A stretch of 64,000 nucleotides of DNA from an uncultured Sphingomonadales bacterium (lineage in GTDB: Bacteria; Pseudomonadota; Alphaproteobacteria; Sphingomonadales; Sphingomonadaceae). The notes beneath the pieces were generated by a model that was not told the DNA's origin, did no database searches, and was given only the letters and a program-made list of their open reading frames with translations. The DNA lies in contig CAILBC010000012.1 in assembly GCA_903832325.1 (NCBI GenBank), forward strand, positions 148,379 to 212,378. Direction: 5' to 3'. Each line of letters begins with the position of its first letter. Position 1 is the first letter of the stretch. The position numbers and the translations under genes are program-made. Positions 45,838 to 50,605 of the stretch are shown in pieces.

Positions 45838-48150
45838 TTACCGGGCTGCGCGGCCGGTCACGGCGATCCAGACCGGGTTGGTGAAGGCGCGGGCGCCGGC
45901 GCTGTCTTCCACGATCAGCATATACCAGGCTGCGCCATCGGCGGTCAGCGGAAAATCGATCCGCGCGCTTTGGCCAGAGGATGCCAGATCGCGCACCGCC
46001 ACCGGTCCATCGCGGCCGAGCAGCGTTGCCCGTTTCAGCCCCCGCACCGCCTGCACCGTGAAACCCAGCGCAAACCTGCGCCCGGTCCGCACTGTCATGG
46101 TGTCGCCAAACATCCGGTCGGGAAAGACCAGCGGACCATAAGTGACATAGGCGTGCCCGGCCTTCAGCGCGCGCGCATAGGCCAGTGCCGCGGGCACCCC
46201 GCGCTGTGCGGCACCGGGGTGGACAAAGGTGCGCACCCGGCCCGATGCTTCACTCCACACATCGTGCACATCGGTTCCCGCCGCCAGATAATGGCGCTGC
46301 CCCGCGTTCCAGAACGCCGCACCGGCCTTCACCACCCGATCATCATCTTCGGGATTGCGCGCGTTGATTTCCAGCACGTCGAACGCCGGGTTGAACCCGC
46401 CCGGGGCCACGCCGCCCGCCACGCTGGTGAAATAGCCATAGGGAATGAACGGGTGGTTCACCTGAATCACCGCCGCACCCATCCGTCGCGCCTCGGCAAA
46501 GATCGCCCCGACCGTGGTTTTGGCGGTGTCAATCGTCAGCCGGGCATCGGGCCGCAGCGGCCAGGCGTTGAAATGGGCCCACGATGTGGTGATCTCGATT
46601 CCGGGAAGGAACGGCACCCCGCGCCGCCGTGCAATGGCGCGCAGCGGGGCAAGATTGGCAACCGAATCATGATCGCTGACAAACAGCAGGTCCAGCCCCG
46701 CCGCCAGTTGCGACCGCGCCAGATCGGGCGCCGGGGTCACCGCCTCGGCCTGATCGGCATGATGGTGCAGATCGGCCGAAACCCAGCCGCGCGATGCCGG
46801 ATCGAAGATTGCGTCGATCGTGGCGGTCTGCGCCGTGGTCTGCCCCGAAACGATGGTTGCGTGCACAGGCGTCGCCGGCGCCAGCACATCCTTGCCCCAC
46901 GATACCGCCAGGTCATAGTCGCCTGGCGCCAGCGTCAGGCTGGCTTTGCCGCGCCGGTCGAGATCGGTAAAGAACACCCGGCGGCCCAGAAAGCCGATCT
47001 GCGGCTGCTGGCCGCGCTCGATCGTGATCCGCGCATCGAGCGGCCGGCCTGATCCGCGGCGCACAACGCGCAGATTCAGCGTGCCCGGCGGCTGCAGCCC
47101 GGCAAAGTCTTGCGTCCTGTCTCCACCCCCCGTCATGCCGACTGGCACCGGCGGGGTCTGCGTATGGCCGCGCGCCGTGGCATAGGCGGCATAGTCTGCG
47201 CGCGGCAGCTCGATGCGATAGCGGCCCTGCGCATCGCCGATCGTCCAGGCATAGGGCGTGCCGGCCTTTTCGATCATCACCACCGGCTGTGCCACCGGCC
47301 GGCCATCGGCGCCAGTAACCCGCCCCGACAGCACGGCCGAAGCCAGCCCTTTCCGCGCGATTTCCTGCGCCACCACCGGCGCCAGATCGCCTGCGGGCAC
47401 GACTTGCAGCCACCCTTCGAACCGGCGCGTTTCGCCGGGGGCCAGCGTGTGCACCCGGTACATGTCACGCGAACCAAACCCGACATGATTGACATAGGGC
47501 GCATGGAGCGCAACCGCCCAGCCTTCGTCATAGGCCACCACGCGGTCGGACAGCGCGGCAGCGGCCGGTCCGTCGGCCACATCGGCCAGCCCCGGCACCG
47601 CCAGCAGATGCCCGGCACCCGGCCACAGCGTCAGGCCCGAACGCAGCCCGGGCAGCGCCACCGGCCCGCCATTGGCCATGGTCACCACGATGTGCACCTG
47701 ATCGTCGCCCGCTTTCAACGAATAGCGCGTGGTGATCGTCACCATGCCCCAATCGCGCACGGTTTCCACTACCGCTTCTTGCGGGGTGTCGGTCACGATG
47801 GTCAGCGCGTGCTGGCGATTGGGCCAGGCCGACCAGTTGTTGGGGATGAAATCGGCAAAAATGACCGTGTCATGCCCGATCCGGCCCTGGCTGACCGGCG
47901 CCAGATCGATCAGCGCCGCGCGCGGCACGCCATAGGGCGGCGCCGATTCCACCGCCAATGCAAAGGCCAGCCGGTCGTTGATCACGGTCAGATCGCCCGC
48001 GACGCGCGCATCGCCGCCGGGAATTGGCGTCGGGCCCGGCACGATGCGCACTTGCGCCCGCGCCACCGGCGCCAGCAGCAGCAGGGCAACCAGCAGCAGG
48101 GCAACCAGCAGGCAAAGCCGGGACCAGACTGTCGCGCGGGTTCGCCCCAT
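45838..48150 (-). CDS. Secreted CehA/McbA family PHP-domain metallohydrolase
   Basis: A 770-residue protein with a signal peptide (LCLLVALLLVALLLLAPVARA-Q). The N-terminal half contains beta domains, including a carboxypeptidase-regulatory-like fold (SGRVTGADGRPVAQPV). The catalytic PHP domain (about 475-690) has SADLHHHADQAEA, FVSDHDSV, PGIEITT, VNHPFI and GTDVHD, the expected metal ligands. The family is named after carbaryl and mcb hydrolases, but most members have unknown substrates. It is the last gene of a three-gene unit, 9 nt after the ureidoglycolate-lyase-like gene. Confidence 0.88.
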   Translation of the reverse strand: MGRTRATVWSRLCLLVALLLVALLLLAPVARAQVRIVPGPTPIPGGDARVAGDLTVINDRLAFALAVESAPPYGVPRAALIDLAPVSQGRIGHDTVIFADFIPNNWSAWPNRQHALTIVTDTPQEAVVETVRDWGMVTITTRYSLKAGDDQVHIVVTMANGGPVALPGLRSGLTLWPGAGHLLAVPGLADVADGPAAAALSDRVVAYDEGWAVALHAPYVNHVGFGSRDMYRVHTLAPGETRRFEGWLQVVPAGDLAPVVAQEIARKGLASAVLSGRVTGADGRPVAQPVVMIEKAGTPYAWTIGDAQGRYRIELPRADYAAYATARGHTQTPPVPVGMTGGGDRTQDFAGLQPPGTLNLRVVRRGSGRPLDARITIERGQQPQIGFLGRRVFFTDLDRRGKASLTLAPGDYDLAVSWGKDVLAPATPVHATIVSGQTTAQTATIDAIFDPASRGWVSADLHHHADQAEAVTPAPDLARSQLAAGLDLLFVSDHDSVANLAPLRAIARRRGVPFLPGIEITTSWAHFNAWPLRPDARLTIDTAKTTVGAIFAEARRMGAAVIQVNHPFIPYGYFTSVAGGVAPGGFNPAFDVLEINARNPEDDDRVVKAGAAFWNAGQRHYLAAGTDVHDVWSEASGRVRTFVHPGAAQRGVPAALAYARALKAGHAYVTYGPLVFPDRMFGDTMTVRTGRRFALGFTVQAVRGLKRATLLGRDGPVAVRDLASSGQSARIDFPLTADGAAWYMLIVEDSAGARAFTNPVWIAVTGRAAR

Positions 48151-48159
48151 GGTGTGGCG

Positions 48160-48816
48160 TCAGCCCGGCGTGGTCAGCGGGACCGACAGATAGCAGCCGA
48201 ATTCCTTGGCGAAATCGACCGAAACGCGCGCGTGGACCCGGCCCTGCCGATCAAGAAATTCGCCATGATCGTCGATCGGAACAAACGCGCCGTGCCATAC
48301 GCCGGGATGGATATAGATCCCGCGCCCATCGGACCGGAACGTGGTGAACCGGTCGGGCGTAACATCATCGCCGGGCAGCGCCAGCGGCACGACAAAGCTT
48401 TGGCCCTGTGTCGGGAAAAACAACTGGCCGCCATCGGGGTGATAATTGGCGCGCCAGATCAGCGCGCGGTCGCGCGGGGGGCAGGGGCCATCGCCGCGCG
48501 CCTCTTCGGGCCAGGTGCTCCAGCCGAACAGATAGCTGTCACCCACCGCGTTGTTGCGCGCATAAAGCGTTTCGCCTTTCCACCAGAATTCGAACACGCC
48601 TTCGGCAACGCCGCCCTGGTCGCCCGAATTGAGGTCTATCGGCCGCCAGCCTTGCGCCGGCCAGCGCACGATCTCGATGGGAAAAGTCGCCGGATCGTCG
48701 ACCAGGCAGCCATAGCCGGTGAGCGAATCGTTGGTGGCCATCACCAACGGGGTTTCGTGCACCGTGCGCACGCCGGTGGTCGGGATATAGGCGATGTCGC
48801 CTGGATCGAATGCCAT
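48160..48816 (-). CDS. Ureidoglycolate lyase (AllA)-like protein
   Basis: A 218-residue cupin-like protein. GQSFVVPLALPGDDVTPDRFTTF, GRGIYIHPGVWHGAFVPI and VSVDFAKEFGCYLSVPL match the AllA/ureidoglycolate hydrolase family, including the conserved His in HPGVWH. Ureidoglycolate lyase releases urea and glyoxylate in purine catabolism, yet no other allantoin or urea gene is nearby. It may act on a different ureido or carbamoyl compound. The start was moved from 49881 (overlaps the MFS gene) to ATG 48816. Gaps to both neighbours are under 15 nt. Confidence 0.78.
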   Translation of the reverse strand: MAFDPGDIAYIPTTGVRTVHETPLVMATNDSLTGYGCLVDDPATFPIEIVRWPAQGWRPIDLNSGDQGGVAEGVFEFWWKGETLYARNNAVGDSYLFGWSTWPEEARGDGPCPPRDRALIWRANYHPDGGQLFFPTQGQSFVVPLALPGDDVTPDRFTTFRSDGRGIYIHPGVWHGAFVPIDDHGEFLDRQGRVHARVSVDFAKEFGCYLSVPLTTPG

Positions 48817-48830
48817 TGTTGCCCCCATTT

Positions 48831-50159
48831 TCAGGTCTGGACGCCCGCGCGTCCCATGGTGCCTGGCCGACCTAGCCACCACGCGATCAGGCCTGTCAAC
48901 AGCACGCCGCTGGCCACCACGAGCAATCCATCGGTGAAATTGCCGGTGCTGTCCTTGATCCAGCCGATCACGAAGGGCCCGGCAAACCCGCCGATATTGC
49001 CCACCGCGTTGATCAGCGCGATACCCCCTGCCGCCGCCGGGCCATTCAGCCGCGCGGCCGGCAAAGTCCAGAAAATCGGCAGAATCGCGAGCGTGCCGAC
49101 CGCGCCCAGCGTGATCGCGACCATGGACAGCAAGGGCGCGGCGGCAAGCCAGGCACTGGCCGCGAGCCCGGCAAACCCGATAATCGAGGCGGCCAGAATA
49201 TGCCCGGTGCGATCGCCCGAGCGGTCGGAATGTCGGCTCCACCACACCATGCCGATGGCCGCGCAGCCATAGGGAATGGCCACGGCATAGCCCGACAGCG
49301 GCGCGGCAATTCCGGCCGCCTTGAAAATCTGCGGCAGCCACAGCAGCACGCCATAGAGCCCCATTTCCACCCCGAAATAGGCAAGGCACAGGATCAGGAC
49401 ATGTGCATCGGGCAACAGGCGCGCGCTGGCTGCACCATGGCGCACCGTGCGTATTTCGCGCTCGGCCGTCAGCGTGTCTGTCAGCCAGCGGCGCTCTGCT
49501 TCGTTCAGCCAGCGGGCCTGCGCCGGGCTGTCGGGCAGAACGAACAGCGTAACCACCCCCAACACCAGCGATGGCACCGTTTCCAGCACAAACAGCCATT
49601 GCCAGCCAGCCAGGCCCTGGCGCCCGTCCAGCGCCAGAATTGCCGACGAAATCGGCCCGCCGACGGCGGTCGAAATCGGGATTGCGGTCATGAACAGGCC
49701 GATCAGCCGTGCGCGCTGCGGCGCCGGCACCCACTGCGTCAGGTAATAGATCACCCCGGGAAACAGCCCCGCCTCGGCCGCGCCCAGCACAAACCGCACG
49801 AGGTAAAAGCTGCGCGGCCCGGTCACAAACGCCATGCCCAGCGCGACCAGCCCCCAGGTCACTGCGATCCGCGCGATCCACCGCCGCGCGCCGACGCGGT
49901 GCAGGATCAGATTGCTCGGCACTTCGAACAGCACATAGCCGATGAAGAAAATGCCTGCGCCCAGCCCATAGACATAGGCCGAAAAACCCAGATCGCGCTT
50001 CATCCCTTCGGCCGCAAAGCTGACATTCGACCGGTCGATGAACGCCACGAAATACAGCAGCGCCAGAAACGGAATCAGCCGCCGGCCCACTTTGGCCAGC
50101 GTTGCAGCCTCGATTGCCGTTGTCCCGGCCTCTTCGTCGCTGTCCACCGCCCTGCCCAT
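48831..50159 (-). CDS. MFS transporter, anion:cation symporter (ACS) type
   Basis: A 442-residue twelve-helix carrier similar to the phthalate/tartrate/glucarate permeases. LALLYFVAFIDRSNVSFAAEGM is the typical first helix and loop. LFEVPSNLILHRVGARRW and GAAEAGLFPGVIYYLTQWVP are ACS motifs. ACS carriers import organic anions with protons. As first gene of the unit with AllA-like and CehA/McbA-like proteins, it may take up the product of the secreted hydrolase. Confidence 0.9.
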   Translation of the reverse strand: MGRAVDSDEEAGTTAIEAATLAKVGRRLIPFLALLYFVAFIDRSNVSFAAEGMKRDLGFSAYVYGLGAGIFFIGYVLFEVPSNLILHRVGARRWIARIAVTWGLVALGMAFVTGPRSFYLVRFVLGAAEAGLFPGVIYYLTQWVPAPQRARLIGLFMTAIPISTAVGGPISSAILALDGRQGLAGWQWLFVLETVPSLVLGVVTLFVLPDSPAQARWLNEAERRWLTDTLTAEREIRTVRHGAASARLLPDAHVLILCLAYFGVEMGLYGVLLWLPQIFKAAGIAAPLSGYAVAIPYGCAAIGMVWWSRHSDRSGDRTGHILAASIIGFAGLAASAWLAAAPLLSMVAITLGAVGTLAILPIFWTLPAARLNGPAAAGGIALINAVGNIGGFAGPFVIGWIKDSTGNFTDGLLVVASGVLLTGLIAWWLGRPGTMGRAGVQT

Positions 50160-50275
50160 CCCCGTTTGTGAAGGGGGAAGCCTAGGCCGGGTGCATAACG
50201 GTTGTGTGACGAATGCGCGCGACTGGCGGCTGCGCGCAATCTGCGGTACCGTCCCGGGTCTGCCGTGAAAGGACT

Positions 50276-50605
50276 ATGCCGATGCTGGTTGTGACCACTG
50301 AATCCGTGCCGGGTTACCGCGTAACCGCGCTTCACGGCCAGGTTTTTGGCGTTGTCGTGCGCAGCCGCGGGCTTGCCGGCAATATCGCCGCCGGGCTGCG
50401 GTCGATTTTTGGTGGCGAAATCACCGAATACACCGCCCTGCTGGAACAGGCGCGCCGCCACGCGATAGATCGCATGGTTGCCAACGCCCAGGCGATGGGC
50501 GCCAACGCGATCATCATGATGCGTTTTGATTCGGCGGAGATCGGCCAGACGATGAGCGAAATCGTCGCCTATGGCACCGCCGCCACGATCACGCCCGAGG
50601 TCTGA
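50276..50605 (+). CDS. YbjQ (UPF0145) family protein
   Basis: A 109-residue protein with the family core: TTESVPGYRVTALHGQVFGVVVRSRG, then EYTALLEQARRHAIDRMVANAQAMGANAIIMMRFDS. It probably forms a pentameric heavy-metal-binding-like fold, but the function is unknown. GAAAGG lies just before the ATG. The downstream membrane protein starts 3 nt after its stop, so the two form an operon. Confidence 0.88.
   Translation: MPMLVVTTESVPGYRVTALHGQVFGVVVRSRGLAGNIAAGLRSIFGGEITEYTALLEQARRHAIDRMVANAQAMGANAIIMMRFDSAEIGQTMSEIVAYGTAATITPEV

What the first reader, a model, noticed from the sequence alone, without database searches (positions are those of the whole stretch)
45838..50159. Compact operon: ACS transporter, ureidoglycolate-lyase-like enzyme and secreted CehA/McbA hydrolase
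Gaps are 14 and 9 nt, all on one strand. The exported PHP hydrolase belongs to a family named for carbamate-pesticide hydrolases. The cytoplasmic enzyme acts on ureido compounds in its best-known relatives. The carrier type imports organic anions. No other allantoin or urea genes are nearby. The set suggests extracellular cleavage, uptake and intracellular C-N cleavage of one unknown ureido- or carbamoyl-type compound.
Basis: inference. Interest (0 to 1): 0.58.

Follow-up and report, generated by a model that had tools for sequence, protein, structure and literature searches.

The report
Phosphonate-linked operon misread as ureide genes
Three tightly packed bacterial genes that look like urea-compound or pesticide genes by name turn out, across many genomes, to travel with enzymes that break carbon-phosphorus bonds, so they probably help the bacterium feed on phosphonates, and two of the three are proteins not yet tied to that diet.

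Summary
The three genes are real and at the stated positions: MFS carrier 48831-50159, AllA-like cupin 48160-48816 and exported CehA/McbA-type PHP hydrolase 45838-48150, minus strand, gaps 14 and 9 nt. The ureido/carbamate reading is not supported. The AllA-like protein has the AllA fold but scores 18-39 bits against NCBIfam ureidoglycolate-lyase models whose cut-offs are 160-315. Relatives of the set lie with phosphonate genes. In five MAGs the order is cehA > MFS > tmpA > tmpB > AllA-like; in Ruegeria tmpA > tmpB > AllA-like; in a 1.6-Mb genome the AllA-like gene overlaps phnW beside phnA; in three others it lies next to phnC/phnD. In 289 genomes of the class, 15 of 17 with the AllA-like gene carry a PhnZ/TmpB-type oxygenase, against 46 of 272 without it (p=1.6e-9). 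The window's own genome holds a TmpA above its curated cut-off, a PhnZ/TmpB-type oxygenase and a second AllA-like gene behind a phosphocholine phospholipase C. I conclude that the set serves organophosphonate (probably quaternary-amine phosphonate) use: extracellular cleavage, uptake and a metal-cupin step of unknown chemistry. The link to phosphonate catabolism is well supported; substrate and reactions are inferred.

The parts
48831..50159 (-). MFS carrier of the anion:cation symporter (ACS) type, 442 aa; first gene
   Evidence: Pfam MFS_1 156 bits; HpaX 345 and TIGR00893 310 bits, below cut-off; orthologues next to AllA-like genes in L013, L014, L023, L025, L033
48160..48816 (-). AllA-like double-cupin protein, 218 aa; separate subfamily of PF04115 linked to phosphonate genes
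   Evidence: PF04115 35 bits; below all AllA equivalog cut-offs; hhalign to E. coli AllA 96.8%, keeps HPxGxQ and HxxxWH; AF2 model pLDDT 93, best PDB matches 2bdr/1xsq/1yqc AllA; co-occurrence with PhnZ/TmpB-type oxygenase
45838..48150 (-). Exported CehA/McbA-type PHP-domain metallohydrolase with CarboxypepD_reg domain, 770 aa
   Evidence: NF038032 207 bits, cut-off 80; invariant DxHHHxDQ, SDHD, NHP and D-x-H residues in 9 relatives; N-terminal hydrophobic segment; orthologues upstream of tmpA/tmpB in L018, L022, L024, L027, L049
44770..45822 (-). Ligase-associated DNA-damage exonuclease (TIGR04122), 15 nt downstream of cehA; probably unrelated in function
   Evidence: 445 bits, cut-off 325
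50213..50605 (+). YbjQ-family protein, divergent neighbour; flank of the set
   Evidence: PF01906 127 bits

Best explanation
The set is an accessory module for catabolism of an organophosphonate, most likely one carrying a quaternary amine such as 2-(trimethylammonio)ethylphosphonate (M3AEP) in an ester-linked form (for example a phosphonolipid head group). Proposed steps: (1) the exported PHP hydrolase cleaves an ester bond of the extracellular compound [inferred]; (2) the MFS carrier imports the released zwitterion or anion [inferred]; (3) TmpA (contig C43, beside a DUF5690 membrane protein) hydroxylates the carbon next to phosphorus, and the HD-domain mixed-valent diiron oxygenase (contig C42) cleaves the C-P bond to a carboxylate and phosphate [known chemistry for TmpA/TmpB; the genes are shown in this genome, their substrates inferred]; (4) the AllA-like metal cupin acts on an intermediate or side product of that route, probably as a lyase or isomerase on an alpha-hydroxy or carbinolamine-type compound, by analogy with AllA [inferred]. 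Shown here: gene anatomy, homologies, recurrent neighbourhoods and genome-level co-occurrence.
For: Neighbourhood: cehA > OPA/PgtP-like MFS > tmpA > tmpB > AllA-like in L018, L022, L024, L027, L049; tmpA > tmpB > AllA-like, 4-nt overlaps, in Ruegeria L061, where both pass the TmpA and TmpB equivalog cut-offs (591 vs 400; 363 vs 300). L022 also has OYE-type flavoenzyme and GbcA-like Rieske oxygenase genes, i.e. possible demethylation of the glycine betaine product. Phenylobacterium L014, among the closest cehA matches (63%), has DUF5690-tmpA divergent from cehA-MFS-AllA-like; the window's genome has the same DUF5690-tmpA pair (78%/64% identical, TmpA 504 bits vs 400) on another contig. G509: AllA-like overlaps phnW, with phosphonoacetaldehyde dehydrogenase and phnA nearby, all over cut-off. 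L008/L036/L020: phnC/phnD type ABC genes beside it. Co-occurrence: HD oxygenase in 42 of 50 genomes with AllA-like loci; class sample 15/17 vs 46/272, p=1.6e-9; TmpA over cut-off 10/17 vs 9/272, p=1.5e-9; TmpA relatives below cut-off show no clear association, 3/17 vs 17/272, p=0.10. cehA found in 13 of 50 AllA-like genomes, all 13 HD-positive, against 0 of 288 others in the class sample.
Against: In the window itself no phosphonate gene lies beside the set; TmpA and the HD oxygenase are on other contigs. The own HD oxygenase scores just below the TIGR03276 cut-off (209 vs 214.6), well below TmpB (170 vs 300), and has YGE where TmpB/PhnZ have YxxE. In five AllA-like genomes cehA stands apart from the AllA-like gene, with no phosphonate gene detected nearby in the four examined. 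Many AllA-like loci have unrelated neighbours (for example dihydroorotase-like, RNase T-like by inspection); two class-sample genomes with it lack the HD gene (one is 70% complete). CehA-family enzymes with assayed activity cleave carbamate esters (PMC8292978). The co-occurrence tests are not corrected for phylogeny beyond counting families (12 of 13).
Confidence: 0.6

Rival explanations
1. One reading: the set degrades one ureido- or carbamoyl-type compound; the PHP enzyme cleaves a carbamate outside, the AllA-like enzyme releases urea inside.
For: PF04115 match and AllA fold with shared HPxGxQ and HxxxWH motifs; CehA/McbA family membership, whose characterised members hydrolyse carbaryl (PMC8292978).
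Against: All AllA equivalog models are missed by a wide margin; the subfamily associates with phosphonate genes; no ureide genes were noticed among the neighbours examined. Allantoin genes elsewhere in the genome were not searched.
Confidence: 0.1
2. The set serves phospholipid or phosphocholine head groups (C-O-P) rather than phosphonates: the PHP enzyme is a secreted phosphodiesterase and the pathway ends in choline/glycine betaine use.
For: The second AllA-like gene of this genome lies directly behind a phosphocholine-specific phospholipase C (785 vs 580 bits); L014 carries a phospholipase-C homologue about 8.5 kb away; EEP-phosphatase or sulfatase-family genes lie near AllA-like genes in L064, L066, L074; L022 has a GbcA-like gene.
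Against: Choline phosphates need neither TmpA nor a C-P cleaving HD oxygenase, whose co-occurrence is the strongest signal; phnW/phnA and phnC/D contexts are phosphonate-specific.
Confidence: 0.2
3. Chance cluster: a rare laterally acquired group of unrelated genes between housekeeping genes.
For: AllA-like and cehA are absent from 300 other genomes of the family; flanks are DNA-repair, YbjQ and Clp genes; cehA stands apart from the AllA-like gene in some genomes.
Against: cehA + MFS + AllA-like recur in L014 and L023, and cehA near AllA-like in 8 of 80 loci, while cehA was found in none of the unselected genomes of the family and class samples; GC content of the set matches the window.
Confidence: 0.08

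Closest known systems
TmpA/TmpB oxidative pathway for 2-(trimethylammonio)ethylphosphonate (Leisingera caerulea; Rajakovich 2019, as cited in PMC10574752 and PMC8177086)
   Same: The relatives' gene clusters contain tmpA and tmpB next to the set; this genome has a TmpA above the curated cut-off and an HD-domain oxygenase of the same family.
   Different: The described pathway is a two-gene operon; the exported PHP hydrolase and the AllA-like cupin are extra. Here the parts are spread over at least three contigs and the own HD oxygenase is not a clear TmpB.
Ureidoglycolate lyase AllA/DAL3 (EC 4.3.2.3, nickel-dependent cupin; PMC3793230)
   Same: Fold, PF04115 region and the HPxGxQ and HxxxWH motifs.
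   Different: 218 vs 160 aa, family-specific invariant residues (NYHPDGGQ, PGDD, EFG), far below AllA model cut-offs, phosphonate gene context.
CehA/McbA carbaryl hydrolases (PMC8292978)
   Same: Passes NF038032; exported; PHP-domain histidines conserved.
   Different: A separate rare group tied to AllA-like/TmpAB loci; no carbamate context; substrate unknown.
PhnW-PhnA-phosphonoacetaldehyde dehydrogenase pathway for 2-aminoethylphosphonate
   Same: In genome G509 (L185) the AllA-like gene overlaps phnW and lies near phnA and the dehydrogenase gene.
   Different: Those genes are absent from the window; seen in one genome only.

Membership tests
Ureidoglycolate lyase (AllA) | Score above curated AllA equivalog or subfamily cut-offs | tested here: not met
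   Best 38.9 bits (cut-off 230); the eight models have cut-offs 160-315
Ureidoglycolate lyase (AllA) | AllA-type cupin fold with shared histidine/glutamine motifs | tested here: met
   AF2 pLDDT 93; 2bdr E 5e-8, TM 0.66 by target; H126, Q131, H175 invariant, H170 nearly invariant
Ureidoglycolate lyase (AllA) | Urea release from ureidoglycolate | not testable with these tools
   Needs an enzyme assay
CehA/McbA metallohydrolase | NF038032 above cut-off | tested here: met
   206.7 vs 80 bits
CehA/McbA metallohydrolase | PHP metal-ligand residues intact | tested here: met
   Invariant H462/H464, D493/H494, H566, D627/H629 in 9 sequences; ligand role assigned from PHP family knowledge
CehA/McbA metallohydrolase | Carbamate ester hydrolysis | not testable with these tools
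   Needs an enzyme assay
TmpA/TmpB-type phosphonate pathway (genome level) | TmpA above NF049936 cut-off in the genome | tested here: met
   504 vs 400 bits, L090:9277-10527; NNR motif conserved
TmpA/TmpB-type phosphonate pathway (genome level) | TmpB above NF049941 cut-off in the genome | tested here: not met
   170 vs 300 bits; HD-oxygenase family TIGR03276 209.4 vs 214.6, just below
TmpA/TmpB-type phosphonate pathway (genome level) | tmpA and tmpB adjacent to the set in the window | tested here: not met
   They lie on contigs C43 and C42; the set is on C12

The most novel reading that the evidence does not exclude
The AllA-like subfamily is an unrecognised enzyme of phosphonate catabolism: a metal-dependent cupin lyase acting on 1-hydroxyphosphonates or related carbinol intermediates, possibly a new way to break a C-P or C-N bond, and the CehA-type protein is the first secreted PHP hydrolase that frees phosphonates from esters such as phosphonolipids.
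Probability: 0.2. Interest if true: 0.8.

Novelty: new variant of a known kind. Interest (0 to 1): 0.58.

Why it matters
Phosphonates are a widespread phosphorus source, and new pathway parts have been found before from recurring gene neighbours (PbfA, PMC8154272). This work names two further candidate parts, a cupin family that database models would label ureidoglycolate lyase and a secreted hydrolase labelled as pesticide-related, in a wide spread of Proteobacteria. It gives a direct prediction of substrate class and corrects a misleading annotation. If bound or lipid-linked phosphonates are freed outside the cell by the hydrolase, a source of phosphorus now overlooked becomes testable.

Tried and rejected
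Ureide or carbamate reading: tested against curated models and neighbourhoods, rejected as the main reading. Chance cluster: rejected by recurrence. The CehA fold model was poor (pLDDT 67, only 9 sequences) and its PDB matches were not used. Plasmid records added little: seven Paraburkholderia replicons carry an AllA-like gene, annotated hypothetical in the one annotated record opened, with no TmpA/TmpB homologue found nearby. I found no paper in the literature library that links ureidoglycolate-lyase-like proteins, or CehA-type hydrolases, to phosphonate use; the original TmpA/TmpB paper did not turn up in it. No tRNA in the window; GC content of the set is ordinary.

Full report
Observation. 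The three minus-strand genes exist as described: MFS carrier 48831-50159, AllA-like 48160-48816, cehA 45838-48150, with gaps of 14 and 9 nt. The AllA-like gene has an earlier in-frame ATG at 48828 that would shorten the first gap to 2 nt. The divergent YbjQ gene starts 53 nt beyond the MFS start, and a ligase-associated exonuclease gene begins 15 nt after cehA.

What the proteins are. The carrier is an ACS-type MFS protein (HpaX 345 bits, TIGR00893 310 bits, both below cut-off). The hydrolase passes the CehA/McbA domain model (207 vs 80 bits), carries a CarboxypepD_reg domain, has a hydrophobic N-terminus and conserves the PHP histidines and aspartates in nine relatives. Its PHP domain also scores against a nucleoside bisphosphate phosphatase model and PHP phosphoesterase structures. 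The AllA-like protein matches PF04115 only over residues 126-188 and misses every AllA equivalog cut-off. Its 66-member alignment is strongly conserved, mean column identity 60%, with invariant NYHPDGGQ and other residues. An AF2 model (pLDDT 93) has AllA structures as its best PDB matches, and a profile comparison keeps the HPxGxQ and HxxxWH motifs of E. coli AllA. So it has the AllA fold but is a separate subfamily.

Neighbourhoods. Of 80 AllA-like loci in named genomes, 13 have tmpA and/or tmpB homologues within about 8 kb, most of them directly upstream, and 8 have cehA. L018, L022, L024, L027 and L049 show cehA > MFS > tmpA > tmpB > AllA-like; in Ruegeria conchae L061 tmpA and tmpB pass the TmpA and TmpB cut-offs and the AllA-like gene overlaps tmpB. 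L022 continues with OYE-type and GbcA-like genes, as would suit demethylation of the glycine betaine that TmpB makes (chemistry from PMC10574752). In genome G509 the AllA-like gene overlaps phnW, with a PhnZ/TmpB-type gene, phosphonoacetaldehyde dehydrogenase and phnA alongside. L008 has phnC, phnD, phnE and a DUF1045-type gene, all over cut-off, on the other side of the AllA-like gene; L036 is alike by clustering, and L020 has a phnC-like gene and a phosphonate-binding protein gene.

Co-occurrence. A PhnZ/TmpB-type oxygenase (TIGR03276, E<=1e-20) was found in 42 of 50 genomes that hold AllA-like loci, against none of 14 named controls. In an even sample of 289 genomes of the window's class, AllA-like and oxygenase co-occur in 15 of 17 genomes, against 46 of 272 without AllA-like (p=1.6e-9; 12 of 13 families); TmpA above cut-off in 10 of 17 against 9 of 272 (p=1.5e-9); among oxygenase-positive genomes 10 of 15 against 8 of 46 (p=6.6e-4). 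TmpA-like genes below the cut-off show no clear link (3 of 17 vs 17 of 272, p=0.10). In many of these genomes the genes are not linked, so hitchhiking alone does not explain it. The Fisher tests were not corrected for phylogeny or genome size.

The window's genome. It holds TmpA (504 vs 400 bits; C43) directly behind a DUF5690 membrane protein, an HD-domain oxygenase (209 vs 214.6 bits; C42), and a second AllA-like gene behind a phosphocholine-specific phospholipase C (C27). In Phenylobacterium LY.12 (L014), whose cehA is 63% identical, the DUF5690-tmpA pair (78% and 64% identical to the window genome's) lies divergently beside cehA-MFS-AllA-like. The window genome thus has the same parts, split over contigs. 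None of 300 other genomes of the family has the AllA-like gene or cehA, so the trait is rare there and probably acquired; GC content gives no sign of recent arrival.

Interpretation. The best account is an accessory module of organophosphonate catabolism: exported hydrolase, carrier and AllA-fold cupin upstream of or beside a TmpA/HD-oxygenase route. The link to phosphonate use is supported by adjacency, curated-model hits and co-occurrence. The exact substrate, the bond cut by the hydrolase and the reaction of the cupin are inferred. The own oxygenase is not a clear TmpB (YGE instead of YxxE; motif from PMC8177086), so M3AEP itself is less certain than phosphonates in general. A phosphocholine or phospholipid role is the main rival, because of the phospholipase C next to the second AllA-like copy.

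Novelty. TmpA/TmpB and PhnZ are known (PMC10574752, PMC8177086). I found no paper in the library connecting AllA-like cupins or CehA-type hydrolases with them, though most subscription papers are not covered.

Noticed in passing
L090:7983-10527 (window genome, contig C43); L014:3707-6229: A DUF5690 (PF18943) membrane protein lies directly before tmpA in both genomes, 78% identical; candidate phosphonate importer from a family of unknown function.
   Followed up: partly
L085:7068-9937 (window genome, contig C27): Second AllA-like gene (45% identical) directly behind a phosphocholine-specific phospholipase C, itself behind a propeller-phosphoesterase gene.
   Followed up: partly
L185:6498-15128 (genome G509, 1.6 Mb): Compact phosphonate cluster: PiT-like gene, HD oxygenase, phnW overlapping an AllA-like gene, a 368-aa unknown, phosphonoacetaldehyde dehydrogenase, phnA.
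   Followed up: partly
L044:397-6739 and L046: Boseongicola MAGs: Na/Pi cotransporter, glutamine-synthetase-like, aldehyde dehydrogenase, iron alcohol dehydrogenase and AllA-like in one row; substrate unknown.
   Followed up: no
L068, L055, L056, L074: AllA-like gene directly followed by a D-2-hydroxyacid dehydrogenase gene (gaps from -1 to 9 nt), a possible clue to its product.
   Followed up: no
L084:9244-9879 (window genome, contig C42): HD-domain oxygenase with YGE in place of YxxE, alone beside a putrescine-type ABC transporter and a glutamine-synthetase-like gene; substrate subtype unclear.
   Followed up: partly
window:42754-45822: ATP-dependent DNA ligase (TIGR04120) and its exonuclease (TIGR04122) downstream of cehA on the same strand, separated by a small plus-strand ORF.
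   Followed up: no
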